From assembly GCF_003386795.1 (NCBI RefSeq), contig NZ_QTUC01000001.1:1488001-1552000 (forward strand): a stretch of 64,000 nt of DNA. The letters run 5' to 3'. The stretch comes from Thermasporomyces composti (GTDB lineage: Bacteria > Actinomycetota > Actinomycetes > Propionibacteriales > Actinopolymorphaceae). A program made the translations under genes and the position numbers. Positions 8,597 to 52,922 of this stretch are shown here, piece by piece. Within the stretch, counting starts at the first letter, position 1; each line of letters starts with the position of its first letter. The notes under the pieces were generated by a model that saw nothing but the letters and a program-made list of their open reading frames with translations, had not been told where the DNA came from and ran no database searches.

Positions 8597-9867
8597 GCCA
8601 GTCCTGCCTCGATGAATGCGTCGTAGGTAGGCCGGATCGTCGCCTGCGGACCGACCTTGCCGGCGATCGCGTCCAGCGTCTTCAGGCCGTCACCGGAGTT
8701 GATGATGACGGTCTCGGCGTCCGGGTCGAGCTGGCCGGTCTCGACCAGCTTCTTCAGCGTGGCCACCGTGACGCCACCGGCCGTCTCACCGAAGATGCCC
8801 TCGGTGCGGGCGAGCAGCGCGATGCCCTCGATCACCTCGTCGTCGCTGACGTCCTCGACGCTGCCGCCGGTACGCCGGCAGACGTCGAGCACGTAGGGAC
8901 CGTCGGCGGGGTTCCCGATCGCCAGCGACTTCGCCACCGTGTCCGGCCGGACGGGCGCCACCACGTCGTGGCCGGCCTTGAACGCTCGCGCCACCGGCGC
9001 GCAACCACTCGCCTGGGCGCCGAAGATCCGGTACGGCGTGTCCTCCACCAGGCCGAGCTCCACGAGCTCGCGCAGACCTTTGTCGATCTTGACGAGCTGG
9101 GCACCCGAGGCGACCGGCACGACGATCTGCTGGGGCAGGCGCCAGCCGAGCTGCTCGGCGATCTCGAAAGCCAGCGTCTTCGAGCCCTCGGCGTAGTAGG
9201 GCCGGACGTTCACGTTGACGAAAGCCCAGCTCTCCTGCTCGCCGGCGATCTCGCTGGCGAGCCGGTTGACGTCGTCGTAGGTGCCTTCCACCGCGACGAG
9301 GGTGCCGCCGTAGACCGCGGTGGTGAGGATCTTCTGCTGCTCGAGGTTGTGCGGGACGAAGACGACGCTGCGGATGCCGGCCCTCGCGGCGGCCGCGGCG
9401 ACGGCGTTGGCGAGGTTGCCGGTGGAGGGGCAGGCCAGCACCGTGAAGCCCAGCTCGCGAGCGGCGGTGAGGGCCACCGCGACCACGCGGTCCTTGAAGG
9501 AGTGGGTCGGGTTGCCGGAGTCGTCTTTGATCCACAGGGTTCGCAAGCCGAGCTCTGCGGCCAGGTGGTCGGCGCGGACCAGGCGGGTGAAGCCAGGCTC
9601 GGTGTTGGGGAACGAAGCGACGTCAGCGGGGACGGGCAGGAGCGGCTGGTAGCGCCAGATGTTCTTGGGTCCTGCCTCGATCTGCTCCCGGGTGATCGTC
9701 GGGTAGTCGTAGCCGACCTCGAGAGGGCCGAAGCATTCGGGACAGGCGTAGTGGGCTCCCAGCGGCGTGGTCGCGCCACACTCTCGACAGCGCAGAACCG
9801 TCGCGTTACCGAAGGCTCCCGGACGAATGGTGTGCGTCTCGCGGGTGGCAGCGTAGGTCGTCGTCAT
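8593..9867 (-). CDS. thrC: Threonine synthase
   Basis: 424-residue PLP enzyme converting O-phosphohomoserine to threonine. An N-terminal zinc-ribbon-like segment (CRECG about residues 27-31, CPECFG about 43-48) is followed by the fold-type II core: PLP lysine in THSFKDRVV (about residue 126), CPSTGNLANAV for phosphate binding, and a late INSGDGLKTLDAI. Length fits the class with the N-terminal CxxC region. Start ATG at 9865-9867 has GGAAG upstream. It is first in an operon with the sulfur carrier, and possibly the glycosidase. No T-box or other leader riboswitch was seen in the upstream 300 bases. Confidence 0.96.
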   Translation of the reverse strand: MTTTYAATRETHTIRPGAFGNATVLRCRECGATTPLGAHYACPECFGPLEVGYDYPTITREQIEAGPKNIWRYQPLLPVPADVASFPNTEPGFTRLVRADHLAAELGLRTLWIKDDSGNPTHSFKDRVVAVALTAARELGFTVLACPSTGNLANAVAAAAARAGIRSVVFVPHNLEQQKILTTAVYGGTLVAVEGTYDDVNRLASEIAGEQESWAFVNVNVRPYYAEGSKTLAFEIAEQLGWRLPQQIVVPVASGAQLVKIDKGLRELVELGLVEDTPYRIFGAQASGCAPVARAFKAGHDVVAPVRPDTVAKSLAIGNPADGPYVLDVCRRTGGSVEDVSDDEVIEGIALLARTEGIFGETAGGVTVATLKKLVETGQLDPDAETVIINSGDGLKTLDAIAGKVGPQATIRPTYDAFIEAGLA

Positions 9868-10191
9868 TCAGAGGCTTCCTTCCTCATCTTTCTCACGTCG
9901 AGTCCGTGCCAGGGTCTGGCGCGGGTGACGCGAGCCGGAATTGGCACCGTGTCCGCCGCGGGGCCTCTGATGAACGCGAGACGCGCGTCGGCGGTCGGCC
10001 GGTTGCCGGGGCTTCATCGGGCCGGTCCCTCAGCCCCTCTGGATGAGTCCGTCCGTGTGTTGTGGTACGCCCGGTGTGGGCATGCGCAGGCGAGCCTAGC
10101 CGACAGGACGGCGACGACGACGTGGAGGTCCACGAATTGAGACGGCCGTCTCACGATGGGATCCGGAATCGGCGGTTCGCCCCTCCTCGTC
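9868..10191. other. thrC upstream region without a gene
   Basis: About 320 bases with only out-of-frame shadows. It should hold the thrC promoter, but no unambiguous -35/-10 pair, hairpin or riboswitch was identified. Confidence 0.5.
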
Positions 10192-10362
10192 TCAGCGCAC
10201 GAGACACCGGCTCGTCTCAGGTGGCGTCGCGGTCGCGGCCGGCGACCGGAGCTCGACGTCCCGTGAGGGCACCTCATCGGTCGCGGACACACCCATCGCC
10301 AGCAGCGTCGGCCCGAGGACGGCCAGGAGCACCGACTTGAGCCACCACTGTCCGACCAGCAT
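10192..10362 (-). CDS. Possible small single-pass membrane protein
   Basis: 56 codons from ATG 10360-10362 with GGAAGGG about 8 bases upstream. One hydrophobic helix (WLKSVLLAVLGPTLLAMGV, residues about 7-25) is followed by a polar tail with several Thr/Pro/Ala residues. No family recognised. It lies 86 bases downstream of the four-helix membrane gene and might be co-transcribed with it. A competing frame uses an ATG 7 bases upstream but gives an Arg/Trp-rich protein that looks non-biological. Confidence 0.4.
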   Translation of the reverse strand: MLVGQWWLKSVLLAVLGPTLLAMGVSATDEVPSRDVELRSPAATATPPETSRCLVR

Positions 10363-10448
10363 CGGCGCATCCCTTCCTGTTCGTGGCCTGCGCGCACCAC
10401 GGCGCGAGCGGTGGCACCGACCGTCGAGACGGCAACGAGGACGCCGCG

Positions 10449-10859
10449 CTAGGAGCGGCGGTTGAGGATGAGCAGCGAACCCAGGTAGACGAGGCCCACA
10501 ACGCCCCCGAGGAAGCCCCACAGGCCGCCATCCCCGCCGCGCGCCACGTTGACCATGAGCCCTCCCAGGATGACGAGGGCGAGGATGTTGAGCGTGTACA
10601 CCGCCGCGCGCTGGTGCAGCTGGACGTGGCGCTCCTCGTGGATGTCGTCGCCGAGCAGCGCCACGGTGTCGCTGACGCGTGACCCGAGGACCACCACCAG
10701 CGCGGCGCCCGCCATGATGCCGAACATCACGAGCCCGAGTCCCGGCCGGCCGCTCGTGGCGGCCGCGGCGCCCATGCCGACTCCGATGACCAGAGCCAGC
10801 ACCACCGCCGGCATCGAGATCCGCCGACCGGCCCGCCTACGGTTGGTCGTCGTCGACAT
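10449..10859 (-). CDS. Four-helix integral membrane protein paired with an XRE regulator
   Basis: 136 residues with four hydrophobic segments: about 15-33 (AVVLALVIGVGMGAAAATSG), 40-62, 92-108 (YTLNILALVILGGLMVNVA) and 115-131. A charged stretch between helices 2 and 3 contains GDDIHEERHVQLHQRA. The architecture resembles DUF2178-type proteins that are often encoded next to a small Cro/CI regulator. The start ATG at 10857-10859 overlaps the regulator's 3' end by 23 bases, so the pair is translationally linked. Role unknown; immunity, stress sensing or envelope function are all possible. Confidence 0.75.
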   Translation of the reverse strand: MSTTTNRRRAGRRISMPAVVLALVIGVGMGAAAATSGRPGLGLVMFGIMAGAALVVVLGSRVSDTVALLGDDIHEERHVQLHQRAAVYTLNILALVILGGLMVNVARGGDGGLWGFLGGVVGLVYLGSLLILNRRS

Positions 10860-41220: not shown

Positions 41221-42216
41221 TCAGCGGGCGACGTTCTCGGCGCTGTCGAGGGTGGCCAGCTCTCGACGACGCGGCAGGCCCTCCCAGTCGCCGGACACCG
41301 ACACTGAGAACGCGCCGCAGACGTTGCCACGGCGCAGACGGTCTGCGGGCGAGAGCCCGTCGAGCAGCGCCGACAGGTAGCCCGCGACGAAGGCGTCGCC
41401 CGCTCCCACCGGATCGACCAGGGTGACCGGCAGGGCCGGCGACGTCACGACCTCCCCGTCGATCAGCGCGTACGCTCCGTCGCCGCCCCGCTTGATCACC
41501 ACCTGGGTGGGACCCCGGCTGGCCAGCCCCTTGGCCAGGTGCGCCACGGATCCCTCGCCGACCACGAGCGCGGCCTCGTCCTCGCCGGCGAAGACCAGGT
41601 CTGCCCGCTCGACCAGCGTCGCCAGCTCGGCGCCGGCCTCCGCGGGCGACCACAGCGCCGCGCGGTAGTTGAGGTCGAACGACACCAAGACCCCGGCATC
41701 CCGGGCGATCTCCACTGCTCGGTGGACGGCCGCACGCGCGGACGGCGAGAGCGCCGGCGTGATGCCGGAGACGTGGAGGAGGCGGGCGGCGCGAACGAGC
41801 TCCGGGTCGACGTCGTCCGGCGCCAGTCGCGAGCCAGCCAGACCACGTCGGTAGTAGCTCACCCGGACCCGATCGGCGGTGCGGCGCTCGCGCAGCATCA
41901 GCCCGGTCGGCACCTCGGTCTCGAACGTCACCCGGGACACGTCCACGCCCTCACCGCGCAGGGCGGACGCGATGAGCAGACCGAGCGGGTCATCACCGAG
42001 TCGTCCGATCCAGGCCGCGCGGTGGCCGAGCCGGCTCACCCCGATGGCGACGTTCGTCTCGGCTCCGCCGAAGGAGACGCGCGCGGGGGCGCCGACCGTG
42101 AACGAGCCGGTATCGGTGGCCGCGACCAGCCCCATCGTCTCGCCGAGCGTCACGAGGTCGACCCGGGTGCCGCCCTGGTCGTTGGTGCGGTCGTCAGGCG
42201 AGGCGTCACCGCTCAT
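41221..42216 (-). CDS. kdgK: PfkB-family 2-keto-3-deoxygluconate kinase
   Basis: 331 residues. Ribokinase fold: N-terminal 'VTLGETMGLVAATDTGSFTV', FGGAETNVAIGVSRLGHRAA with the GG substrate motif, and the C-terminal signature VDPVGAGDAFVAGYLSALLD with catalytic Asp (about residue 267) and anion hole. The R-x-R-V-S-Y-Y-R-x-G motif (VRVSYYRRGLAGSRL) is characteristic of KDG kinases. It makes KDPG for the aldolase encoded immediately upstream; the two genes overlap by 4 bases (ATGA at 42213-42216). Confidence 0.93.
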   Translation of the reverse strand: MSGDASPDDRTNDQGGTRVDLVTLGETMGLVAATDTGSFTVGAPARVSFGGAETNVAIGVSRLGHRAAWIGRLGDDPLGLLIASALRGEGVDVSRVTFETEVPTGLMLRERRTADRVRVSYYRRGLAGSRLAPDDVDPELVRAARLLHVSGITPALSPSARAAVHRAVEIARDAGVLVSFDLNYRAALWSPAEAGAELATLVERADLVFAGEDEAALVVGEGSVAHLAKGLASRGPTQVVIKRGGDGAYALIDGEVVTSPALPVTLVDPVGAGDAFVAGYLSALLDGLSPADRLRRGNVCGAFSVSVSGDWEGLPRRRELATLDSAENVAR

Positions 42217-42857
42217 CGACGTCTCCCCCGCCTCGTCACGTTCGCGACCAGCCGGCGCGCCCGCTCCGCGAGCGCGTCGAGGTCGCCGTCGGACTGGCAG
42301 GCGTCGCCGATGAGCGGGCTCCCCACGCCGACGGCGGTGGCGCCGGCCACGAGGTAGAACTCAGCGTCGTCGACGCTGACCCCGCCGGTCGGCACGAGGG
42401 GGATGTCCGGCAGCGGTCCCCGGATGGCCTTGACGTAGCTCGGGCCACCCACCGCCGAGGCCGGGAAGACCTTCACCATCGCCGCGCCAGCCCGCCACGC
42501 GGTGAGGATCTCGCTCGGGGTGAGGGCGCCGGGCAGAACCGGCACTCCGAGGCGCGCCCCCTCCTCGATCACGTCCACGTTCAACGAGGGGGAGATCAGG
42601 TATGTCGCACCCGCGTCCACCGCCTGGCGAGCCTGCTCCACCGTGGTCACCGTGCCGGCGCCGAGCGCGACGTCAGCGGGCTTGCGAGCGGCGTACTTGC
42701 GGATCGCGTCAGCGACGTTCGGAGCAGTGAAGGTGAACTCCACCGCGCGGATGCCCTGCTCGACGAGCACGTCACTGACGTCGGCGAACCGGGCCGCGGA
42801 TGACGACCGCAGGATCGCCACCGCTGGGCAGGCGTTGATCGCTTCCTGCAAACCCAC
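42213..42857 (-). CDS. eda: KDPG/KHG aldolase
   Basis: 214 residues from GTG 42855-42857, with AAAGGAG upstream. Motifs: AVEFTFTAPNVADAIRKYAA (catalytic Glu), LGAGTVTTVEQARQAVDAGA, TYLISPSLNVDVIEEGARLG, and the Schiff-base Lys in AAMVKVFPASAVGGPSYVKA (about residue 131), then LVPTGGVSVDDAEFYLVAGA. It cleaves KDPG to pyruvate and glyceraldehyde-3-phosphate. Longer upstream frames (to 43418) have no start signal and are rejected. First gene of the kdgK-eda operon, divergent from the Nramp-like transporter. Confidence 0.94.
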   Translation of the reverse strand: MGLQEAINACPAVAILRSSSAARFADVSDVLVEQGIRAVEFTFTAPNVADAIRKYAARKPADVALGAGTVTTVEQARQAVDAGATYLISPSLNVDVIEEGARLGVPVLPGALTPSEILTAWRAGAAMVKVFPASAVGGPSYVKAIRGPLPDIPLVPTGGVSVDDAEFYLVAGATAVGVGSPLIGDACQSDGDLDALAERARRLVANVTRRGRRR

Positions 42858-43000
42858 GAGCGTCTCCTTTGTCGGACGGGCCAGACAGGCCTGGACGAGC
42901 CCTTGTCGGAGGGCACGGCGACGACCCTGTGGCCCCGAGCCGTGCTCCGAGCCATGCGACGGCCTCTGAGTGTAGAGCCGCCCCTGACCGGGCTGGTCTC

Positions 43001-43015
43001 GATGTTTCGAACATC
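43001..43015. promoter_or_regulatory. Candidate operator palindrome
   Basis: GATGTT and AACATC, 6-bp inverted arms with a 3-base centre (TCG), 144 bases upstream of eda. The form TGTTTCGAACA resembles sites of IclR-type sugar-acid regulators, but this is a guess. Confidence 0.5.
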
Positions 43016-43095
43016 TTGACCGCGTGTATCGGCGGGATTTCACTGATCGAGGCGTCGCCGATCCGCGGCGTAGCGGGACCCGGCCTCGCCACCGC

Positions 43096-43160
43096 GCGGC
43101 TGCGTCACCACGGGGCGGCTGCGTCACCACGGGGCGGCTGCGTTCCCATGGGGCGGCTGG
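43096..43160. repeat. 19-bp tandem repeat upstream of the Nramp-like gene
   Basis: Units 43096-43114 and 43115-43133 are identical (GCGGCTGCGTCACCACGGG). Unit 43134-43152 differs at three positions, and a partial unit starts at 43153. The array ends 34 bases before the start codon. Confidence 0.85.
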
Positions 43161-43194
43161 GCCGCCTCGGGTACGGCAGCGGGAAGGAGCGCGC

Positions 43195-44688
43195 ATGGCG
43201 ATCGAGCGAGACCCCGCCAAGCCTGGTCCGGCCGATCCCGCACACCGCGATTCCACTCCCGTCGATGCGGCGCGGACGACCTTCACGCCCACGCTCTCCA
43301 CCAGGTACCTGCCAGGTGTCGCGATCCGCGACCTCCCCGCCGCGCCGACGAACACCTGGCGCATCATCGGCCCCGGCCTGGTCGGCGCCGGTGTCGGCCT
43401 CGCCTCCGGCGAGTTCATCTTGTGGCCCTACATCGCCACGCAGGTGGGCCTGGTGTTCCTGTGGGGCGCGGTGATCGGCGTCACCACCCAGTGGTTCCTC
43501 AATATGGAGATCGAGCGCTACACGCTCGCCACGGGCGAGACCGCCCTCACCGGGTTCAGCCGCCTGTGGAAGCACTGGGGGCTGGTCTTCGCCGTCATGA
43601 CCTACTTCGCCAACTTGTGGCCGGGTTGGGCCACCAGCTCGGCCTCGCTGATGACGTACATCGTCGGCGGCGACGTCCGGGTCATCGCCATCGGGATCCT
43701 GGTGGTCTGCGGGGCGGTGCTCACGCTCGCCCCGGTGGTCTACAACGCTCTCGAACGCGTCATCTTCCTCAAGGTGGCCATGATCCTGCTGTTCGTGGCC
43801 GTCGCCATCGCGTTCGCCATCAGCGGCGACGCCTGGCGCGGTCTCGGCCAGGCGGTCACGCACGTCGGACAGTTCCCCTCCACGCTGGAGTACTCGCTCA
43901 TGCTCGGCGCGATCGCCTACGCCGGGGCCGGTGGGGGGCAGAACCTGTGCCAGAGCAACTGGATCCGCGACAAGCGGTTCGGCATGGGGGCGTACGTCCC
44001 GCGCCTGGTCAGTCCGGTCACCGGGCAGGAGGAGGCGGCGCCCTCGACGGACTTCGTCTTCGCACCGACCCCGGCGAACCTCCGCCGCTGGCGGGCATGG
44101 TGGCGGTTCGCCAACATCGAGCAGGCTCTGACGTTCGTGCTCATCACCGTGCTCACCATCGGCTTCATGTCGATGCTGGCCTACTCGACGGTCTACGGCC
44201 GGGGAGGACTCACCCGCGACATCGGCTTCCTCCAGGTCGAGGGCAACGTCCTGATGTCCCAGGTCGGGTCGTGGTTCGGCTACCTGTTCTGGGTGATCGG
44301 CGCCTACAGCCTGTTCGCGGCCGCGATGGGCATCATCGACTACACGAGCCGGCTCGCCGCCGACCTGCTCGCCACGGTCTACCTGCGCGGGTCTGGGATC
44401 TCCGAGAGCCGCATCTACTTCTGGCTGGTGTGGGGCCTCGTCGCGTTCGGCGTCCTCGTGCTCCTGCTCGGCGTGGACCAGCCCCTGGTCCTGCTCGTCA
44501 TCTCCTCGTGCGTGAGCGGCGTCATGATGGCGATCTACGGCGTCCTGCTCATCATCATGAACAAGCGAGCCTTGCCGACACCGATCCGGATCCCACGGTT
44601 CCGCACCGTGGTCATCGCCCTGGCCGTGCTGTTCTACGGCGTCCTCGGCGTCATCACCATCGTCGAGGAGGGGCAGAAGCTCTTCTAG
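43195..44688 (+). CDS. Nramp-superfamily transporter lacking canonical metal-binding motifs
   Basis: 497 residues from ATG 43195 (GGAAGGAG upstream). About eleven membrane helices follow a 55-residue polar N-terminus. Overall helices and spacing match Nramp transporters: IIGPGLVGAGVGLASGEFIL in helix 1 and GAIAYAGAGGGQNLCQSNW in helix 6. However, the metal-ligand motif DPGN of helix 1 reads SGEF (residues 71-74) and the MPH(N) motif of helix 6 reads GGGQN (246-250). Substrate is therefore unlikely to be Mn/Fe by the standard mechanism. Its position between two sugar-acid operons suggests an organic acid or a cation co-transported with one (inference). Confidence 0.85.
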   Translation: MAIERDPAKPGPADPAHRDSTPVDAARTTFTPTLSTRYLPGVAIRDLPAAPTNTWRIIGPGLVGAGVGLASGEFILWPYIATQVGLVFLWGAVIGVTTQWFLNMEIERYTLATGETALTGFSRLWKHWGLVFAVMTYFANLWPGWATSSASLMTYIVGGDVRVIAIGILVVCGAVLTLAPVVYNALERVIFLKVAMILLFVAVAIAFAISGDAWRGLGQAVTHVGQFPSTLEYSLMLGAIAYAGAGGGQNLCQSNWIRDKRFGMGAYVPRLVSPVTGQEEAAPSTDFVFAPTPANLRRWRAWWRFANIEQALTFVLITVLTIGFMSMLAYSTVYGRGGLTRDIGFLQVEGNVLMSQVGSWFGYLFWVIGAYSLFAAAMGIIDYTSRLAADLLATVYLRGSGISESRIYFWLVWGLVAFGVLVLLLGVDQPLVLLVISSCVSGVMMAIYGVLLIIMNKRALPTPIRIPRFRTVVIALAVLFYGVLGVITIVEEGQKLF

Positions 44689-44773: not shown

Positions 44774-46267
44774 TCAGTGGCGTACGTCGTCCTTCGTCAG
44801 GACGCCATTGACACGCCGCGGGATCCCGAGGACGTTCTCGTCCCGCAACGGCACCGGCAGCAGGGCCGCCGGCATCTGCTGGTAGCACACCGGCCGCAGG
44901 AAGCGTCGGATCGCGGTGGTTCCCACCGACGTGTGGATGGACGCCGTGGTCGCCGGCCACGGCCCGCCGTGGTGCATGGCGTACGTCACCGAGACACCCG
45001 TCGGCCAGCCGTTCCACAGCAGCCGTCCGGCCCGCTCCCGCAGCAGCGTGAGCAGCGGCGCGACGACGTCGGTCTCCGACTCCTCCGCGTGGACGGTCGC
45101 GGTGAGGTTGCCGCCGAAGGCCTCGGCCGCCCGGGTGAGCTCGTCCAGGTCCGCGTACTCCACGATGATCGACGCGGGACCGAAGCACTCCTCGAGCAGC
45201 TCGTCCTTGTGCTCCAGCAGGTTGGGCACGGTCGTCTTCACCAGCGTCGGAGCCACCGCGAGGTCCCGGACCGGGTCGGCGTGGAGCACCACCTGCACGC
45301 CCTCGACCTCGACGAGCCGACGCAGACCCTGCTCGTAGCCGCGAGCGATCCGGTCGTTCAGCAGCGGGGCCGGCCCGATGTCGCGTGCGGCCGCCACGAC
45401 GGCGTCGACGATCGCGCTGCCCACGGGCACGAACAGCAGACCCGGCTTGGTGCAGAACTGTCCCACGCCCAAGGTGAACGACCCGCAGAAGCCGGTCGCG
45501 ATCTCGTCCGGCCGGGCCTTCGCGGCCCCGGGGAAGACGAAGACCGGGTTGAGGCTGCCCAGCTCGCCGTAGAACGGGATCGGATCGGGTCGACCGGAGG
45601 CGATGTCGAAGAGCGCGCGACCACCGGGGATCGACCCCGTGAACGAGCCGGCCTTGATCCTGGGGTCGCGCAGCGCCTGGACGCCCTGGTCGGAGCCGAA
45701 GATCACGTCGAACGTGCCGTGCGGCGCGCCGGCTTGCGCCAACGCGTCCTTGACGATGGTCCCGGTGCGGGCGGACAGGCGCGGGTGGCCGGAGTGGGCC
45801 TTGACGATGACCGGGCATCCGGCGGCGAGGGCCGAGGCGGTGTCACCGCCGGCCACGCTGAACGCGAACGGGAAGTTGCTGGCCGCGTAGACCAGGGTGG
45901 GGCCGAGCGGCACGAGCATCCGGCGCACGTCAGGGCGAGGACCCATACCCCAGTCGGGGTCAGCGGTGTCGATGGTCGCCTCCAGGTACGACCCCTCCTC
46001 CAGCACCTCGGCGAAGAGCCGCAGCTGGAACGTCGTCCGGGTCAGCTCCCCCCGCAGTCGCCCCTCGGGCAGGTGGGACTCCTCCATGGCCAACGGGACG
46101 AGCTCGTCGGCCGCGGCGTCGAGCGCGTCGGCGACCGCGCGCAGCAACGGAGCCCGCTCGTTCGGCAGCAATGAGCCGAGCGGTTCGCTGGCCGCGGCCG
46201 CGGCCGCGAGGATGGCCTCCAGCTGTTCCGACGTCGTGGGTTCGACGGTGGTAGGGGATACGGTCAT
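44774..46267 (-). CDS. 2-oxoglutarate semialdehyde (2,5-dioxovalerate) dehydrogenase
   Basis: 497-residue aldehyde dehydrogenase of the NADP-dependent KGSADH group. Visible: VYAASNFPFAFSVAGGDTAS (substrate tunnel), ALAAGCPVIVKAHSGHPRLS (cofactor phosphate), GSFTGSIPGGRALFDIASGR, the catalytic Glu in FYGELGSLNPVFVF, and the catalytic Cys in TLGVGQFCTKPGLLFV. The H-S-G-H-P motif and the SLNPVFV wording are characteristic of this subfamily. It oxidises the semialdehyde from 2-keto-3-deoxy-pentonates or 5-keto-4-deoxyglucarate to 2-oxoglutarate. It overlaps the FAH-family gene upstream by 4 bases, forming a two-gene operon. Confidence 0.92.
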   Translation of the reverse strand: MTVSPTTVEPTTSEQLEAILAAAAAASEPLGSLLPNERAPLLRAVADALDAAADELVPLAMEESHLPEGRLRGELTRTTFQLRLFAEVLEEGSYLEATIDTADPDWGMGPRPDVRRMLVPLGPTLVYAASNFPFAFSVAGGDTASALAAGCPVIVKAHSGHPRLSARTGTIVKDALAQAGAPHGTFDVIFGSDQGVQALRDPRIKAGSFTGSIPGGRALFDIASGRPDPIPFYGELGSLNPVFVFPGAAKARPDEIATGFCGSFTLGVGQFCTKPGLLFVPVGSAIVDAVVAAARDIGPAPLLNDRIARGYEQGLRRLVEVEGVQVVLHADPVRDLAVAPTLVKTTVPNLLEHKDELLEECFGPASIIVEYADLDELTRAAEAFGGNLTATVHAEESETDVVAPLLTLLRERAGRLLWNGWPTGVSVTYAMHHGGPWPATTASIHTSVGTTAIRRFLRPVCYQQMPAALLPVPLRDENVLGIPRRVNGVLTKDDVRH

Positions 46268-47196
46268 CGCACAGCCTCCCGAACGAACGGATCGCTGATC
46301 GCGTCGACGAGCCAGGCCAGCGGCTCCTTGCCGACCACGACGGGATTGGACAGGGCACCGACGTCGCTGATGGTGATGTCGACCCGGTCACCGGCCGCGA
46401 GCGTGAACGACATCTCGGGGATGATGCCGGTGCCGGTGGCGAGCACGACCCCTTCCGGGAAGGCCTCGCCCGCGAACAGGTAGCTCACCAGCTCCTCCAG
46501 CGAACGCTTCATCCGCGCGGTCGACGTCGAGCCTTGCCAGGCGGGAGCACCGTCTCGGACGACGGTGAGCGTGATGTCCAGGGCGGTGGGGTCGGGCACC
46601 TCCCAGGCGGGGCGGATGCCCGCGGAGATGGCGCAGCTACCGGCGTAGATCTTCGCCTGCGGAAGGTAGAGAGGGTTCTCCCCCTCGATGACGCGGGAGC
46701 TCATGTCGTTGCAGACGACGAAGCCGACGATCTCGCCTGCCCGGTTGACGACGACACCCAGCTCTGGCTCGGGAACGTCGAGCCCGGAGTCCGCTCGGAT
46801 GCCGACCGGCTCCCCGTGGGTCACCACCCGCCACGCGACCGCCTTCATGAAGAGCTCGGGCCGCTGGGCGTCGTAGACCTTCTCGTAGACCGACTTCTCG
46901 GTGCTCTCCTCGACCCGCGCCACCTTGGAACGCTCGTAGGTGACGCCCGAGGCCCACACCTCGGTCCGTCCGTCGACAGGCGGCAGGAGAAGGACCTCGG
47001 ACTCCGCACGCACTCCGGTCGAGTCCGAGGCGGCCCGCGCCCCGGCGGCGTCGACCAGGTCGCGGACCTCCTTGCGGGGCAGCCTCAACAGCTCGCAGAT
47101 CCCGCCGACGTCAACGAGCGGGGCCACCCGGCCGGCCTGGCGAACGCCGACCCGGACGACCCGATCGACTCGGTCGGCGTAACGGACGATCTCCAC
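46264..47196 (-). CDS. Fumarylacetoacetate hydrolase-family protein, probable 2-keto-3-deoxy-pentonate dehydratase
   Basis: 310 residues. FAH C-terminal fold: VWASGVTYERSKVARVEEST, SGLDVPEPELGVVVNRAGEI with the metal-binding E-x-E and D, IVGFVVCNDMSSRVIEGENP, YLPQAKIYAGSCAISAGIRP, and VVLATGTGIIPEMSFTLAAG. The pairing with KGSA dehydrogenase (ATGA overlap) strongly suggests 2-keto-3-deoxy-D-arabinonate/L-arabinonate dehydratase of an oxidative pentose (Weimberg-type) route, not tyrosine breakdown. The matching pentonate dehydratase and dehydrogenase are not in this window. Confidence 0.85.
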   Translation of the reverse strand: MEIVRYADRVDRVVRVGVRQAGRVAPLVDVGGICELLRLPRKEVRDLVDAAGARAASDSTGVRAESEVLLLPPVDGRTEVWASGVTYERSKVARVEESTEKSVYEKVYDAQRPELFMKAVAWRVVTHGEPVGIRADSGLDVPEPELGVVVNRAGEIVGFVVCNDMSSRVIEGENPLYLPQAKIYAGSCAISAGIRPAWEVPDPTALDITLTVVRDGAPAWQGSTSTARMKRSLEELVSYLFAGEAFPEGVVLATGTGIIPEMSFTLAAGDRVDITISDVGALSNPVVVGKEPLAWLVDAISDPFVREAVR

Positions 47197-48064: not shown

Positions 48065-48829
48065 TTAACCAGGGTGACCTAGCCGCTTGGACAGCCTGGC
48101 CGCGCCGTCGGCGACGAGCCGCCCCAGCTCGTCCCGCCGTTCGGGCGACCAACGTACGGTCGGGACCGAGATGCTCATGGCCGCCACGACGCGGTCGCCG
48201 CGGTCTCTCACCGGGGCCGCGACGCACGCGACGGCGTCGTTGGACTCGCAGTACTCCTCGGCCAGGCCCTTCGCGCGGATGCGCGTCAGCCGTTCCCGCA
48301 GCCGTACCGGCGAGGTGAGGCTGCGCGGCGTCAGCGCGGGCAAGGGCTGGTCGAGCGGGAACCGGGCGTTGAGCGTCTCCGGGTCGAGGCTGGCGAGCAG
48401 CATGAGACCGACGGCGGTGCAGTGCGCGGGGAGTCGACGTCCCACCGCCGAGACCATGCGGACCGGGTGGGTGCTGTCGACCTTGGCGATGTAGACGACG
48501 TCCCGACCGTCGAGGACGGCCACGTGGACGGTCTCGTCGCAGGCCGCGGCCACCTCCGCCGCGACGACCTGCCCCTCGCGCGCGAGGTCGAGGCGCTCGG
48601 CGTAGGCCGCACCGAGCTGGAACACCCCGACGCCCAGTCGGTAGCGGTGCGGATGATCTGGCGACGGCGCGAGGTACGACCGGGCCACGAGAGTGCCGAC
48701 GAGCTCGTGCACCGAGGTCCGCGGCAGCCCCAGACGCGCGTGGATCTCCGGGATGGACAGCTCTTCGGCCGTCGTGAAGAGCTCGAGGATGTCGAGGGCT
48801 CGCGTGACCGCAGGTACGGACCGCCCCAT
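48065..48829 (-). CDS. IclR-family transcriptional regulator
   Basis: 254 residues from ATG 48827-48829 with AAGGAGG upstream; longer frames are rejected. Winged helix N-terminus: VTRALDILELFTTAEELSIP, EIHARLGLPRTSVHELVGTL (recognition helix). The effector domain has DETVHVAVLDGRDVVYIAKV, RLPAHCTAVGLMLLASLDPE and VACVAAPVRDRGDRVVAAMS. It is divergent from the U32-family gene, with a palindrome in between, so it probably controls that gene and itself. The effector is presumably a small acid or sugar acid. Confidence 0.93.
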   Translation of the reverse strand: MGRSVPAVTRALDILELFTTAEELSIPEIHARLGLPRTSVHELVGTLVARSYLAPSPDHPHRYRLGVGVFQLGAAYAERLDLAREGQVVAAEVAAACDETVHVAVLDGRDVVYIAKVDSTHPVRMVSAVGRRLPAHCTAVGLMLLASLDPETLNARFPLDQPLPALTPRSLTSPVRLRERLTRIRAKGLAEEYCESNDAVACVAAPVRDRGDRVVAAMSISVPTVRWSPERRDELGRLVADGAARLSKRLGHPG

Positions 48830-48886
48830 GCGCCCTCCTTCGGTGCGAGCTTGACGGGCCCGTGACCGGGCCGTCACGATGTCCGA

Positions 48887-48910
48887 GTATACGAATGTTG
48901 TTCGGTATAC
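48887..48910. promoter_or_regulatory. Candidate IclR operator
   Basis: Arms GTATACGAA (48887-48895) and TTCGGTATAC (48901-48910) form a near-perfect inverted repeat, one base out of register, around TGTTG. It is 57 bases upstream of the iclR start and about 120 bases before the U32 gene. A+T-rich compared with the surroundings. Confidence 0.65.
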
Positions 48911-49031
48911 CGCACACGCCAGGCCACCGCACCTGGCACGCCGTCCGCGGCAGCCTGGGCCGCAGAGTCGAGACCGGCCTGCCGCGGACAGGGACGGGAC
49001 ACCGTACGAGCCTTTGTGGGAGGGTCCATCC

Positions 49032-49991
49032 GTGGCTGGCGCAACCACCCCTTCGACACCTGGATCGCGACTTCTCGAGCAGCTGGACCTTCCCGCTCGC
49101 GATCTCGGCGAGCTGCCGGCGTCCGCCAAGCGCTTCCCCGACGGGGTCCGCTACCGCATCGAGATCCCCAGCACCGAGGGGCCCCGGTGCCTCGACGCCG
49201 CGCTCGAGGAGGCCGAGCGGCTCGACGTCCCGGTCCGGCGCATCTCTCAGGGCAGCGGCGTCTTCCTGCTGACCGACGACGAGATCGACGCCATGGTCGA
49301 GCGAGCCGCGCTCGCCGGCGTGGAGATCAGCCTCTTCGCCCGCCCGTGCGCTGGGTGGGGCACCTCCGCGACCGCCCGCTCCAGCGCGGGAGGCGGTTTC
49401 GCCGCCACCGCGCACGGCCAGCAGCAAGTCGCCGCCGTGCTCGACGACTGCCTGCGGGCCGCCGAGCGGGGCATCCGCAGCGTCCTCATCTCCGACATCG
49501 GCGTCCTCGCGGCGTTCGGCAAGCTCCGCGCTCAAGGCCACCTCCCGGAGGACATGCAGGCCAAGGTGTCGGTCATGCTGCCGATCACCAACGCCGCCAC
49601 GGCCCGACTGCTGGAAGACCTCGGCGCGAACACGCTCAACGTGGCCACCGACCTGAGCCTCGCGCAGATCGCCGCCATCCGCGCCGCCGTCGACATCCCG
49701 CTCGACGTCTACGTCGAGGCTCCCGACAACCTCGGCGGCTTCCTCCGTCACCACGAGCTGCCGCAGCTCATCGAGGTGGCCGCGCCCGTCTACATCAAGT
49801 TCGGTCTGCGGAACGCGCCAGACGTCTACCCGGCCGGCACCCACCTGGAGACCACGACGGTCGCCTTGACCCGCGAGCGGGTGCGCCGAGCGCGGCTCGG
49901 GCTCGACCTGCTACGTCGCGCCGGCGTCGACGAGCCGACCTCCAAGCCAGGAGCGGAAGGCCTCGCCGTACCCGTCCCGCCGACGCGATAG
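49032..49991 (+). CDS. Peptidase U32-like family protein (TIM-barrel)
   Basis: 319 residues from GTG 49032 with GGGAGGG upstream. Barrel-like pattern with RISQGSGVFLLTDDEIDAMV, GVEISLFARPCAGWGTSATA, SVLISDIGVLAAFGKLRAQG, SVMLPITNAATARLLEDLGA, NTLNVATDLSLAQIAAIRAA, LDVYVEAPDNLGGFLRHHEL and a C-terminal 'VYIKFGLRNAPDVYPAGTHL'. The last motif resembles the U32 signature region, but no classical Glu/Phe signature of UbiU/YhbU is complete. The substrate is unknown. It may be a lyase or isomerase acting on a small carbon acid, given the IclR partner. Confidence 0.65.
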   Translation: MAGATTPSTPGSRLLEQLDLPARDLGELPASAKRFPDGVRYRIEIPSTEGPRCLDAALEEAERLDVPVRRISQGSGVFLLTDDEIDAMVERAALAGVEISLFARPCAGWGTSATARSSAGGGFAATAHGQQQVAAVLDDCLRAAERGIRSVLISDIGVLAAFGKLRAQGHLPEDMQAKVSVMLPITNAATARLLEDLGANTLNVATDLSLAQIAAIRAAVDIPLDVYVEAPDNLGGFLRHHELPQLIEVAAPVYIKFGLRNAPDVYPAGTHLETTTVALTRERVRRARLGLDLLRRAGVDEPTSKPGAEGLAVPVPPTR

Positions 49992-50615: not shown

Positions 50616-50978
50616 GCCACCCTCGCCTCCCGTGTGTGGCAGGTGCGGCGGCCACCCACACCCGTGGGGGCCGGAGCGGCACGTGGCCGCCGCACACCCG
50701 GTTGGTCAGGCGCGGCGGCCAGGACCACCATTCCCACTGCCTGGCCACCAGGCCGAGGCCATAGAGGTCAACCAACCACCGCGCCAGTCTGCAGGCGCTC
50801 GCGTCTTGTGTAGGAGCAGTTCACCGTTAAACCGCCCAAAAGTCAATGCTATGGAGCAACGTTTCAGGAACGAGGTGACTTCATGGCTGTTCGACACTAT
50901 GCGTCAACTTGTGTCGCAGACGCGATGGCTGTTTAATTTGGACGGAGCAATCGCCCAAACTTGTCGAGGAGGTGGCGG
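50616..50978. other. XRE upstream region, no confident gene
   Basis: About 360 bases. A minus-strand frame at 50498-50737 ends with a hydrophobic helix (WKAATFVVAAVIGLLMTVIT) but its N-terminal part is implausible. The last 170 bases are unusually A+T-rich for this genome and should hold the XRE promoter; GAGGAGG lies before ATG 50979. Confidence 0.5.
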
Positions 50979-51884
50979 ATGCCCCATGGCCCCAGCTCGT
51001 CTCCATTGATCCGTCGGCAGCTCGGCCGCCGGCTCGCCGCCTTGCGTGTCGCGGCAGGTCTCACCCAAGAGCAGGTCGCCGAAGCCATCGAGCGGGCGCG
51101 AGCCACCATCGGCCGGATGGAAGACGGGGTAGAGAGCGTCCGCTACCGCCAAAGCGACCTGAAGGCGATGCTCAAGCTCTACAACGCCAGCGAAGAGGAC
51201 ACCCAGCTCATCCTCGGCTTGGCGGCGGAGACCCGGAACGGGAACCGGAAGTCGTGGTGGCACGACTACACCGAAAGCGTGCTGCCCTCATGGTTTCGGT
51301 TCTATGTAACGCTTGAGACCTCAGCCGAGCGCATCCGCCTGTACGAGACTGAGCTTGTACCCGGTCTGCTACAGACCCGGGCCTACGCCGAGCAGGTGAC
51401 CCGTACTCCCGAGGGCTACCTCGACGAAAAGGACGTCGAGGAGCGGGTCAACATTCGTATGAGTCGCCAATCACTGCTCACCCAGCCGCGGGCGCCCCAG
51501 CTCCACGTGATCCTCAACGAGGCTGTCCTTCACCGTAAGGTCGGCGACGACGCGGTGATGGCCGAGCAGCTAGAGCACCTGTTAAAGGTCAGTGAACGGG
51601 CGAACGTTATCCTCCGCGTCCTTCCGTTCGACGCTGGAGCGCATGGCGGGCTCGCGGCTGGTGGCCCGTTCCACATCCTCGACTTCCCCGACGATCCGAC
51701 AACGGGGGAGCCCCTAGAGCCACCACTGGCCTATGTAGAAACGCTCACCGGAGCGTTCTACATGAGCAAGCACGAGGAGGTGAGCGCCTTTCGGCTCGTC
51801 TGGGACGACCTTGAACGTCGGGCTCTGGGCCAGCCCGGCTCAATGGAAAAGATCGCCGATACCTTGAAAGGACTCCAAAAGTGA
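50979..51884 (+). CDS. XRE-family regulator with C-terminal DUF5753 domain
   Basis: 301 residues from ATG 50979 with GAGGAGG. HTH in the N-terminal 65 residues (LAALRVAAGLTQEQVAEAIE, ARATIGRMEDGVESVRYRQS), followed by the DUF5753 ligand-type domain: YETELVPGLLQTRAYAEQVT, MSRQSLLTQPRAPQLHVILN, VLPFDAGAHGGLAAGGPFHI and PPLAYVETLTGAFYMSKHEE. This is the classical actinomycete XRE protein paired with a DUF397 protein (overlap GTGA at 51881-51884). Such pairs regulate differentiation or behave as dedicated pairs with an unknown ligand. Confidence 0.95.
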   Translation: MPHGPSSSPLIRRQLGRRLAALRVAAGLTQEQVAEAIERARATIGRMEDGVESVRYRQSDLKAMLKLYNASEEDTQLILGLAAETRNGNRKSWWHDYTESVLPSWFRFYVTLETSAERIRLYETELVPGLLQTRAYAEQVTRTPEGYLDEKDVEERVNIRMSRQSLLTQPRAPQLHVILNEAVLHRKVGDDAVMAEQLEHLLKVSERANVILRVLPFDAGAHGGLAAGGPFHILDFPDDPTTGEPLEPPLAYVETLTGAFYMSKHEEVSAFRLVWDDLERRALGQPGSMEKIADTLKGLQK

Positions 51885-52075
51885 GTCGGTTCATCAACTG
51901 GCGCAAGTCCAGCTACAGCAATAACGGCGGCGCCTGCGTCGAGGTCGGGATCGCTCCCGGTGTCGTCGGCGTCCGGGACTCCAAGCTGGGTGAGGACTCG
52001 CCCATCCTGGCGGTCACCCCGGCCGACTGGAGCGCCTTCGTCAGCGCCGTCAAGGCTGGCCAGTTCGACCTCTGA
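51881..52075 (+). CDS. DUF397 protein, partner of the XRE regulator
   Basis: 64 residues, GTG 51881 overlapping the XRE stop. The DUF397 pattern is complete: 'WRKSSYSNNGGACVEVG', 'VGVRDSKLGEDSPILAVTPA', 'DWSAFVSAVKAGQFDL'. It likely acts in a complex with the upstream regulator, perhaps as an antagonist. It is nearly identical in the 'SKLG-DSPILAVTPADWS' region to the second copy at 52704-52922. A hairpin follows. Confidence 0.95.
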   Translation: MSRFINWRKSSYSNNGGACVEVGIAPGVVGVRDSKLGEDSPILAVTPADWSAFVSAVKAGQFDL

Positions 52076-52098
52076 CGCGACCAGCACACCGAAACCAC

Positions 52099-52128
52099 GC
52101 GGTGCCCCGGGCCTGCCTGGGGCACCGC
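52099..52128 (+). terminator. Hairpin after the first DUF397 gene
   Basis: GCGGTGCCCC (52099-52108) and GGGGCACCGC (52119-52128), 10-bp perfect arms around a 10-base G+C-rich loop. It shares the GGTGCCCC/GGGGCACC arms with the hairpin after the second DUF397 gene. Confidence 0.75.
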
Positions 52129-52194
52129 CCTCCTCAGGCGTGTCTTGATTAATCGAACGCTGTAGAAAAGCTTCCATCAAGCCCTCGTACGGAG

Positions 52195-52719
52195 CAGAGT
52201 TTTACCAGGCGGTACGCCGAGCGGATCACCAGGACGGCCGCCGGCTACTTCAACGAGGACCGAATCCAGCGCATGGTGAACACCCGCATGAAGCGACAGG
52301 CGCTCCTGAGCCGTCCGACGCCACCGAGCTATGAGGTGATCATTTGCGAGGCGGCGCTCCGCCGGCTCGACGTCTCCGACGAGATGGCCCACGAGCAGCT
52401 ACAACGCCTGCTGGAAGACCGTCCCCGCATCAACGTGCGGGTCCTGCCGTTCAGCGCCGGCATTCACGGCGGCATGGCAACATGCGGCTCATTCTCGATC
52501 CTGGACTTCCCCGCGGATCCCTACACCGGTGCGCCCATCGAGCCGCCACTGGCTTACGTGGACACCCTCACCGCGGCGTTCTACATGTACAAGCCCGACG
52601 AGGTTCGCGGCTACCAGCACATGTGGCGGGACCTCGATCGGCGGGCCTTGGATCGGCCCACGTCACGAGAGTTCATCAGCGACATCCTGAAAGGACGTTC
52701 GTCGTGTCCGACAACATGA
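52195..52719 (+). pseudogene. Truncated XRE/DUF5753 regulator (5' end missing)
   Basis: The frame opens at about 52195 with 'QSFTRRYAERITRTAAGYFN', aligned to 'LLQTRAYAEQVTRTPEGYL' of the intact gene, and continues to the natural end (FISDILKGRSSCPTT). Nothing before this point aligns: the HTH domain and the first part of DUF5753 are gone, and the upstream 120 bases follow the first DUF397 gene without a start. Internal ATG 52273 could restart a product of 148 residues without DNA-binding. Codons are otherwise intact, so truncation seems recent. It is followed by an intact DUF397 gene. Confidence 0.8.
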
Positions 52720-52922
52720 AGGGGACCTTCGCCGACGCGACCTTCCGCAAGAGCAGCTACAGCGGCGCTAACGGCGGGAACTGCGTGGAGGTCGCGGTCG
52801 CCCCTGGCGTCGTCGGCGTCCGGGATTCCAAGCTCGGCGCGGACTCGCCCATCCTGGCGGTGACCCCGGCCGACTGGAGCACCTTCGTCAACGCCGTCAA
52901 GGCCGGCCGGTTCGACCTCTGA
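52704..52922 (+). CDS. Second DUF397 protein
   Basis: 72 residues from GTG 52704 with AAAGGA, overlapping the truncated regulator's end. The full DUF397 pattern is present ('FRKSSYSGANGGNCVEVAVA', 'VVGVRDSKLGADSPILAVTP', 'ADWSTFVNAVKAGRFDL'). It retains its own start although its cognate regulator is broken, so it may now pair with the intact XRE protein or be on the way to loss. Its DNA is highly similar to the first copy over the last 120 bases, pointing to duplication or gene conversion. Confidence 0.9.
   Translation: MSDNMKGTFADATFRKSSYSGANGGNCVEVAVAPGVVGVRDSKLGADSPILAVTPADWSTFVNAVKAGRFDL

What the first reader, a model, noticed from the sequence alone, without database searches (positions are those of the whole stretch)
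43195..44688. Nramp-like transporter without metal ligands, between two sugar-acid operons
Helix-1 DPGN is SGEF and helix-6 MPH is replaced by GGGQN, so canonical Mn/Fe coordination is lost. It is flanked by kdgK-eda and KGSADH/FAH genes. This suggests an unstudied Nramp branch that moves an organic acid or another ion linked to sugar-acid use.
Basis: partly seen in the sequence, partly recalled or inferred. Interest (0 to 1): 0.7.

Follow-up and report, generated by a model that had tools for sequence, protein, structure and literature searches.

The report
Nramp-fold carrier in sugar-acid gene cluster
A bacterial membrane carrier that databases call a metal transporter has lost the metal-gripping and proton-carrying residues of that family and sits, in its own family and some other lineages, among genes for breaking down sugar acids and similar organic acids, so it may carry such acids instead of metals; this is untested.

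Summary
Window 43195-44688 (+) encodes a 497-aa protein with a predicted Nramp fold. TM1 D-P-G-N is A70-S71-G72-E73, TM6 M-P-H is G248-Q249-N250, and the proton-path residues are absent. It misses Pfam Nramp but scores 532 bits on NCBIfam NF037982.

It belongs to an SGE-motif branch apart from canonical MntH and PxpT/YcsG. In its own family kdgK-eda lies within four genes in 5 of 5 held-out loci, with a 2-hydroxyacid dehydrogenase that the window lacks here. Other sugar-acid or hydroxyacid genes adjoin relatives in Geodermatophilus, Actinoplanes, Pseudonocardia, Streptomyces, Rubrobacter-type bacteria and haloarchaea; a sister group sits with oxalate genes. Marker genes: 8 of 16 held-out loci, 2 of 20 beside MntH, 0 of 20 random. 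But outside its own family this is 3 of 11 (p 0.06), and 0 of 5 in its own subgroup; 31 Nonomuraea and 15 Kribbella loci have none.

Most likely a carboxylate (sugar-acid) carrier (0.46); main rival a divalent-metal importer (0.3). I found no transport data for this branch.

The parts
43195..44688 (+). Nramp-related (SGE-motif) membrane transporter, 497 aa
   Evidence: ORF and translation; NF037982 531.7 bits; predicted model pLDDT 78, pTM 0.82; Nramp-family structures fill the top 21 Foldseek and top 26 VIA-align rows
43402..43413 (+). TM1 A70-S71-G72-E73 in place of canonical D-P-G-N
   Evidence: alignment A2 and profile alignment to D. radiodurans MntH; G72 and E73 invariant in the 16 rows of A1
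43936..43944 (+). TM6 G248-Q249-N250 in place of canonical M-P-H
   Evidence: N250 invariant in A1
43184..43189 (+). AAGGAG ribosome-binding box upstream of the ATG
   Evidence: sequence printed
42822..43194 (.). divergent intergenic region between eda and the transporter gene
   Evidence: gene calls; no perfect 7-bp-arm palindrome and little alignment to relatives
42213..42821 (-). KDPG/KHG aldolase (eda); an earlier in-frame start is possible (42890 was used for the family scan)
   Evidence: PF01081 E 2e-41; TIGR01182 above its cut-off
41221..42216 (-). PfkB sugar kinase, best match 2-keto-3-deoxygluconate kinase (KdgK-like)
   Evidence: PF00294 E 1.5e-53; NF040938 209.5 bits, below its cut-off of 400
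44774..46267 (-). aldehyde dehydrogenase, proposed semialdehyde dehydrogenase
   Evidence: PF00171 E 8.3e-37; no NCBIfam cut-off reached among the 25 rows shown
46264..47196 (-). FAH-superfamily enzyme (2-keto-3-deoxy-acid dehydratase or diketo-acid hydrolase, inferred)
   Evidence: PF01557 E 8.7e-21
48065..48829 (-). IclR-family regulator, KdgR-like
   Evidence: PF01614 E 2.4e-43; NF011671 KdgR 161.2 bits, below its cut-off of 275

Best explanation
It is a secondary carrier of the Nramp (LeuT-type) fold that has changed substrate from a transition metal to a small hydroxy-carboxylate. It most likely imports an aldonic, uronic or related sugar acid (or its 2-keto-3-deoxy form) that the neighbouring kinase/KDPG aldolase and FAH/aldehyde-dehydrogenase enzymes degrade. 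Shown here: fold by predicted model, loss of the canonical metal and proton residues by alignment, linkage to carboxylate catabolism in the own family and in some other lineages. Inferred: that the Gly-rich TM6 break with Asn and the TM1 Glu form an enlarged polar site for an organic acid, that transport is inward, and that coupling, if any, does not use the canonical TM3-TM9 proton path. The exact acid is not known.
For: Residue loss. Own family: kdgK-eda within four genes in 5 of 5 held-out loci (L164-L168) and a 2-hydroxyacid dehydrogenase at +1 or +3 in 5 of 5; in four of them GntR-type regulator, SDR, 2-hydroxyacid dehydrogenase, SDR, ALDH, FAH and IclR follow (Pfam run on L164 only). Geodermatophilus: FMN_dh > transporter > KdgK-like > DHDPS-family > 2-hydroxyacid dehydrogenase, with a 4-bp overlap between transporter and kinase. 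4 of 7 Streptomyces loci: transporter > IlvD/EDD > FAH. Pseudonocardia: GD_AH > SDR > IlvD/EDD, divergent 2-hydroxyacid dehydrogenase. 1 of 3 Actinoplanes loci: FMN_dh 40 bp upstream. Rubrobacter plasmid: UxaA, FadR/GntR, LutABC, four-carbon acid sugar kinase, PdxA, LarA. Haloarchaea: FAD/Fe-S oxidoreductase with L-lactate permease or with RhcF. Sister group: formyl-CoA transferase homologue within four genes in 7 of 10 loci, over its family cut-off in the one scanned. Held-out test 8 of 16 vs 2 of 40 controls, p 0.0003. The marker label needs 12 changes on the tree (at least 9 forced); 500 shuffles average 23. 6 of 7 other family genomes carry an Nramp of canonical strength (PF01566 321-384 bits) and all 6 carry this transporter too, so it is not their only Nramp. 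Precedent: PxpT is required for growth on 5-oxoproline (PMC13274462, passages).
Against: I found no transport data for the branch. No marker in Nonomuraea (0 of 31 loci), Kribbella (0 of 15) and 16 of 17 Micromonosporaceae loci, so the family is not tied to one pathway. In four of the five held-out own-family loci the genes further out are syntenic too, so adjacency there may be inherited. Outside the own family the held-out test is 3 of 11 vs 2 of 40, p 0.06; those 3 are not from the window protein's own subgroup (one Rubrobacter-type, two oxalate-type, both types already in the discovery set), and the 5 held-out loci of that subgroup outside the family (L170-L173, L182) have 0. The marker panel was built from discovery loci, so only held-out counts are a test. 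The Aureimonas plasmid copy shows isocitrate lyase upstream and no marker. The conserved Glu could bind a cation. Experimentally studied Nramp-related proteins include Mn and Mg importers.
Confidence: 0.46

Rival explanations
1. It is still a divalent-cation importer (Mn2+, Fe2+ or Mg2+, perhaps hydrated), placed beside these operons to supply metal to metal-dependent enzymes such as UxaA-type dehydratases, IlvD/EDD and Lut Fe-S proteins.
For: Precedents in other Nramp-related groups: EleNRMT moves Mg2+ and Mn2+ without protons (PMC8806188, passages); YcsG overexpression raises cell Mn and MntR binds its promoter (PMC10448178, passages); MumT affects Mn content and lies in a urea-use operon (PMC5050338, passages). 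E73 and N250 could be cation ligands. None of the four NF037982 matches in the window's genome has DPGN; one further weak PF01566 match there (20.2 bits) was not examined.
Against: Asp, Met and His of the canonical site are absent, and the Asp of the NRMT motif (DxxG-TxxA/T) too. No Rfam family at its gathering score in window 32000-56000 or six related loci. 6 of 7 other family genomes have a strong Nramp besides it, and all 8 genomes have a ZnuA-type binding protein. Several linked enzymes (2-hydroxyacid dehydrogenase, FMN_dh, formyl-CoA transferase) are not known for needing Mn or Fe (recalled).
Confidence: 0.3
2. The branch moves another class of small molecule (for example amino acids, N-acyl amino acids, small peptides or amides), and sugar-acid linkage reflects substrate shifts in some lineages or inherited gene order.
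For: In 22 of 31 Nonomuraea loci a protein of about 260 aa without a known family lies within three genes, nearly always directly upstream, with an M19 dipeptidase further upstream and an acyl-transferase/amide-hydrolase-type gene downstream in many (Pfam run on L051). Beyond Nramps the model's next best solved structures include KimA and amino-acid carriers.
Against: Carboxylate-catabolism genes of different kinds recur beside the gene in several lineages.
Confidence: 0.18
3. No specific link: the gene sits between the two operons by chance and its neighbours tell nothing about its function.
For: Only 1 of 80 named loci repeats the window's kdgK-eda plus ALDH-FAH set; wide synteny in its own genus group; 0 of 5 held-out loci of its subgroup outside the family carry a marker.
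Against: Held-out test against canonical MntH and random loci as a whole; tight gene runs in Geodermatophilus and Streptomyces.
Confidence: 0.06

Closest known systems
Canonical Nramp / MntH (SLC11)
   Same: Fold: the top solved structures are Nramps (Z 35.8, rmsd 2.9, 382 residues for D. radiodurans MntH 6c3i_B); same G in the TM1 break
   Different: D-P-G-N is A-S-G-E; M-P-H is G-Q-N; E124, D131, E134, R352, R353 of DraNramp are absent (residue numbers from PMC12873925, passages); 17-18% identity to three MntH rows; no Pfam PF01566 match at E 0.05
NRMT, Nramp-related Mg2+ transporters (EleNRMT; C. acetobutylicum NrmT)
   Same: Nramp fold (EleNRMT 7qji Z 32.7), no canonical proton path
   Different: NRMT keeps TM1 Asp (DxxG-TxxA/T motif, PMC8806188); here Asp is Ala and the Asn position is Glu; no M-box element found
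PxpT / YcsG (MntG), 'G-motif 3' group
   Same: Nramp-related, rebuilt site, found in an operon for catabolism of a carboxylate (5-oxoproline); fold match to the YcsG model 9a52 (Z 34.9)
   Different: 13-15% identity to two pxp-linked proteins (L235, L237); TM1 VGPGF, TM6 without the GxN pattern; separate in the tree; no pxpA in the window's genome or 7 family members
NCBIfam NF037982 'Nramp family divalent metal transporter'
   Same: 531.7 bits against a cut-off of 50
   Different: The model also takes DPGN MntH, at 283-305 bits in the eight such loci inspected, so its name does not show a metal substrate for SGE-motif proteins

Membership tests
Canonical Nramp (SLC11/MntH) | TM1 D-P-G-N metal site | tested here: not met
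   A70-S71-G72-E73
Canonical Nramp (SLC11/MntH) | TM6 M-P-H metal/proton site | tested here: not met
   G248-Q249-N250
Canonical Nramp (SLC11/MntH) | TM3/TM9 proton-path residues (E124, D131, E134, R352, R353 in DraNramp) | tested here: not met
   Y137, G144, gap, V412, W413 in alignment A2; sequence alignment, not superposed coordinates
Canonical Nramp (SLC11/MntH) | Pfam PF01566 match | tested here: not met
   no match at E up to 0.05; 2 of 16 A1 members match, best 2.9e-4
Canonical Nramp (SLC11/MntH) | Nramp/LeuT fold | tested here: met
   predicted model; Foldseek E 1.4e-9 to 6d91; VIA Z 35.8 to 6c3i_B
Canonical Nramp (SLC11/MntH) | Mn2+/Fe2+ transport | not testable with these tools
   needs transport assays
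NRMT (Nramp-related Mg2+ transporter) | DxxG (TM1) and TxxA/T (TM6) motif | tested here: not met
   AxxE in TM1; motif as stated in PMC8806188
NRMT (Nramp-related Mg2+ transporter) | M-box riboswitch upstream (a part of the family only) | tested here: not met
   no Rfam match at gathering score in window 32000-56000 or six related loci
PxpT/YcsG group | linkage to pxpABC 5-oxoprolinase genes | tested here: not met
   no LamB_YcsF (PxpA) match in the window's genome
PxpT/YcsG group | sequence grouping with pxp-linked transporters | tested here: not met
   13-15% identity to L235 and L237; separate branch; YcsG itself was not in the tree
NCBIfam NF037982 | score over the curated cut-off | tested here: met
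   531.7 vs 50 bits
SGE-motif Nramp-related branch (named in this report) | S/A-G-E-(F/L/Y) in TM1 with GxN-type TM6 and RYTLATGE in TM2 | tested here: met
   alignment A1 and the motif table
Carboxylate (sugar-acid) transporter | transport of, or growth dependence on, a sugar acid | not testable with these tools
   only gene linkage tested

The most novel reading that the evidence does not exclude
The SGE-motif Nramp-related proteins, including the sister group beside oxalate genes and the groups beside LutABC, tetronate, altronate and pentonate genes, are a family of organic-acid carriers in which the metal site was rebuilt (Asn to Glu in TM1, Met-Pro-His to Gly-x-Asn in TM6). The Nramp fold then switched from metal cations to carboxylates, and the database name 'divalent metal transporter' is wrong for the branch.
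Probability: 0.42. Interest if true: 0.78.

Novelty: new variant of a known kind. Interest (0 to 1): 0.55.

Why it matters
[quoted passage not shown] This locus and its relatives supply a specific, testable substrate class for one such branch. If right, sequence would separate metal carriers from carboxylate carriers within one fold, the name of many 'divalent metal transporters' would change, and uptake of sugar acids, tetronates and oxalate in actinobacteria would have a candidate. If it is a metal importer instead, it shows a metal site rebuilt around Glu and Asn, which would also be new. YcsG/PxpT shows that the same dispute is live in a neighbouring group.

Tried and rejected
A single conserved sugar-acid operon for the whole family: rejected; in 80 named loci the window's kdgK was found in 2, eda in 1, ALDH in 2, FAH in 5 (tblastn E 1e-10).

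A 5-oxoproline (PxpT) role: unlikely; no pxpA match in this genome and two PxpT-like proteins are only 13-15% identical.

Mg2+ riboswitch or other RNA element: none at gathering score.

Shared operator between the transporter and its flanking operons: no perfect palindrome with 7-bp arms in the three window upstream regions; the eda-transporter region aligns poorly between the window and its relatives. Not pursued.

Sequence match to solved structures: none real with P0001 alone (one hit, E 0.79, to an engineered repeat protein), none with the A1 profile; only a mixed profile that includes MntH rows reaches Nramps.

Relatives in the classes of the Amaricoccus and Povalibacter loci are rare: 2 of 289 and 3 of 274 genomes, both counts including the centre genome itself.

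Papers tying Nramp to oxalate, sugar acids or gluconate: none among the 10, 15 and 10 papers listed by three searches that hit 220, 398 and 30 papers (listings only).

Plasmid records: of 12 with a match I opened 8; one (Nonomuraea) carries no annotation there, and Halomicrococcus shows neither the oxidoreductase nor the lactate permease in its stretch, which is cut at the record end.

Labels in the printout: 'TM3' and 'TM9' are really the end of TM2 and TM8, by the model's helices.

Rows dropped before the held-out count: L169 (same genome as L038) and L175, L176, L177 (one or two neighbours only), leaving 16 of 20; with all 20 kept it is 9 of 20. The genus-level p sets 5 of 11 held-out groups against 2 of 40 control loci not reduced to genera. 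The 2 positives among MntH loci are 30%-identity formyl-CoA-transferase homologues at position +4. Two tree rows bear the marker label on weak matches (L156, 33%; L163, 28%). My genus labels count [Actinomadura] parvosata as Nonomuraea and 'Streptomyces sp. SID13031' as Kribbella.

Gene boundaries in unannotated loci come from my own codon-usage caller, whose calls in L118, L119 and L122 matched the annotated genes closely, some starts excepted.

Full report
WHAT IS THERE. Window 43195-44688 (+) is an intact 497-aa membrane-protein gene with an AAGGAG box shortly before its ATG. It matches NCBIfam NF037982, 'Nramp family divalent metal transporter', at 531.7 bits, yet no Pfam family, not even Nramp (PF01566), at E up to 0.05. 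AlphaFold2 with a 16-row alignment gave a model of mean pLDDT 78 and pTM 0.82. Foldseek and VIA-align put Nramp-family structures first (6d91, E 1.4e-9; 6c3i_B, Z 35.8, rmsd 2.9 over 382 residues), then KimA and amino-acid carriers. So the fold is Nramp although identity to three MntH rows is 17-18%.

THE SITE. Aligned through intermediate sequences, to the D. radiodurans chain in the PDB by profile and by residue, canonical D-P-G-N is A70-S71-G72-E73 and M-P-H is G248-Q249-N250. G72, E73 and N250 are invariant in the 16 rows of A1. The proton-path positions E124, D131, E134, R352 and R353 correspond to Tyr, Gly, a gap, Val and Trp (DraNramp numbers from PMC12873925, passages).

THE BRANCH. 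Matches to the A1 profile at E 1e-40 or better (sister groups included) occur in 54 of 245 genomes of the window's order, 18 of 296 of its class and 25 of 39 in the class of a member of another lineage of the phylum. They are rare in the classes of the Amaricoccus and Povalibacter loci (2 of 289 and 3 of 274, centre genome included). A maximum-likelihood tree of 76 rows places the window protein with Actinopolymorpha and two other genomes of its family (support 100/99) inside a 35-row subgroup (98/100). Four MntH rows and two pxp-linked PxpT-type proteins (L235, L237) fall outside. Long branches make the deeper joins unsure. The window's genome has four NF037982 matches: this gene, a 42%-identical paralogue and two proteins with G(A/S)GELIATT; none has DPGN. 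One more weak PF01566 match there was not examined.

NEIGHBOURS IN ITS OWN FAMILY. In four held-out genomes (L164, L165, L166, L168) the order is kdgK, eda (divergent), transporter, a GntR-type regulator, then on the other strand SDR, 2-hydroxyacid dehydrogenase, SDR, ALDH, FAH, IclR (Pfam run on L164 only). The window lacks the GntR gene, both SDRs and the 2-hydroxyacid dehydrogenase at this place. Genes further out are syntenic as well, so this alone could be inherited order. In L167 and Actinopolymorpha pittospori (L038/L169) the region is rearranged; the transporter keeps the 2-hydroxyacid dehydrogenase and an SDR-type gene near, with kdgK-eda three to four genes away in L167 and about 7 kb away in the other.

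NEIGHBOURS ELSEWHERE. Geodermatophilus: FMN_dh, transporter, KdgK-like kinase (4-bp overlap), DHDPS-family aldolase, 2-hydroxyacid dehydrogenase, all one way. Actinoplanes aureus, 1 of 3 Actinoplanes loci: FMN_dh 40 bp upstream. 4 of 7 Streptomyces loci: transporter, IlvD/EDD, FAH, with a divergent GntR-type gene in the two whose upstream side is held (Pfam on L073). Pseudonocardia: GD_AH dehydratase, SDR, IlvD/EDD and a divergent 2-hydroxyacid dehydrogenase. Rubrobacter-type genomes: LutABC, four-carbon acid sugar kinase, PdxA, LarA, UxaA. Haloarchaeal plasmids: an FAD/Fe-S oxidoreductase with L-lactate permease in three records opened and with RhcF in one; a fifth shows neither in its cut stretch. 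A sister group (28-30% identical) lies with formyl-CoA transferase homologues in 7 of 10 loci fetched. In L138 that enzyme scores 647.8 bits on TIGR03253, cut-off 504.2, and stands beside a thiamine-pyrophosphate enzyme and an acyl-CoA-ligase-type protein, which reads as oxalate catabolism; the TPP enzyme itself reached no family cut-off among the rows shown.

WITHOUT A LINK. None of the 31 Nonomuraea and 15 Kribbella loci and 1 of 17 Micromonosporaceae loci has a marker. The Aureimonas plasmid copy has isocitrate lyase upstream and no marker. In the discovery set as a whole 30 of 125 loci carry a marker, and the panel was built from that set.

TEST. I fixed a panel of carboxylate-catabolism markers in the notebook, then found and fetched held-out loci and two control sets. 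Markers within four genes: 9 of 20 held-out loci; 8 of 16 after dropping a duplicate and three contig fragments; 2 of 20 beside canonical MntH; 0 of 20 random loci from genomes that carry the branch. Fisher p is 0.0003 against both controls, 0.01 against MntH alone, 0.003 by genus, and 0.06 when the window's own family is left out (3 of 11). Of the 8 positives, 5 are one family, 1 is Rubrobacter-type and 2 are oxalate-type, kinds already seen in the discovery set. The 5 held-out loci of the window protein's own subgroup outside its family (L170-L173, L182) have none. The linkage is therefore clear within the family and only suggestive outside it. On the tree the marker label needs 12 changes (at least 9 forced) against a mean of 23 in 500 shuffles: clustered, yet gained or lost many times.

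METAL RIVAL. YcsG and MumT are reported as Mn importers and EleNRMT as a Mg2+/Mn2+ carrier (PMC10448178, PMC5050338, PMC8806188; passages). PxpT and YcsG are, in contrast, reported as needed for use of 5-oxoproline (PMC13274462, passages). Here, 6 of 7 other family genomes have an Nramp of canonical strength (best PF01566 match 321-384 bits; motif not inspected) as well as this transporter, and all 8 have a ZnuA-type binding protein; no Rfam element lies nearby. This lowers, but does not remove, the metal reading.

CONCLUSION. The substrate is untested. The finding is a new variant of a known kind, with a clear experiment that would decide it.

Noticed in passing
L138, L139, L140, L142, L143, L178, L179 (sister group): An Nramp-related protein (TM1 GMGES, TM6 AGPSGMQQ) sits with formyl-CoA transferase homologues and, in most, a thiamine-pyrophosphate enzyme; in the five discovery loci an acyl-CoA-ligase-type gene precedes it and a protein of about 175 aa (no Pfam match in L138) follows it: a candidate oxalate carrier.
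   Followed up: partly
L158, L159, L160/L119, L125, L126, L131: SGE-motif Nramp-related genes lie near Lut lactate-use genes, most with a four-carbon acid sugar kinase (OtnK-like) and some with PdxA; the Rubrobacter plasmid carries a second, GSGELIATT-type Nramp gene just before UxaA.
   Followed up: partly
L144 (G000:C1:425300-445200), gene at 9319-10788 (-): A 42%-identical paralogue in the window's own genome is followed, overlapping by 4 bp, by two Gfo/Idh/MocA oxidoreductase genes, with a divergent sodium:solute symporter gene on its other side.
   Followed up: no
L051, L150 and other Nonomuraea loci: A protein of about 260 aa, without a Pfam or NCBIfam match in L051, lies directly upstream of the transporter on the same strand, near M19 dipeptidase and acyl-transferase-type genes.
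   Followed up: no
L151, L152, L154: A 492-aa protein (weak GCS2, glutamate-cysteine ligase family, match in L151) lies 39-48 bp downstream of the transporter on the same strand.
   Followed up: no
window 48879-49991: Gene with a Peptidase_U32 match (35.5 bits), 82-83% identical in four related genomes and kept beside the IclR gene there; its role in the sugar-acid region is unknown.
   Followed up: no
window 50961-52922: Two helix-turn-helix/DUF397-like gene pairs typical of actinobacteria seem to lie close together (names recalled, not searched).
   Followed up: no
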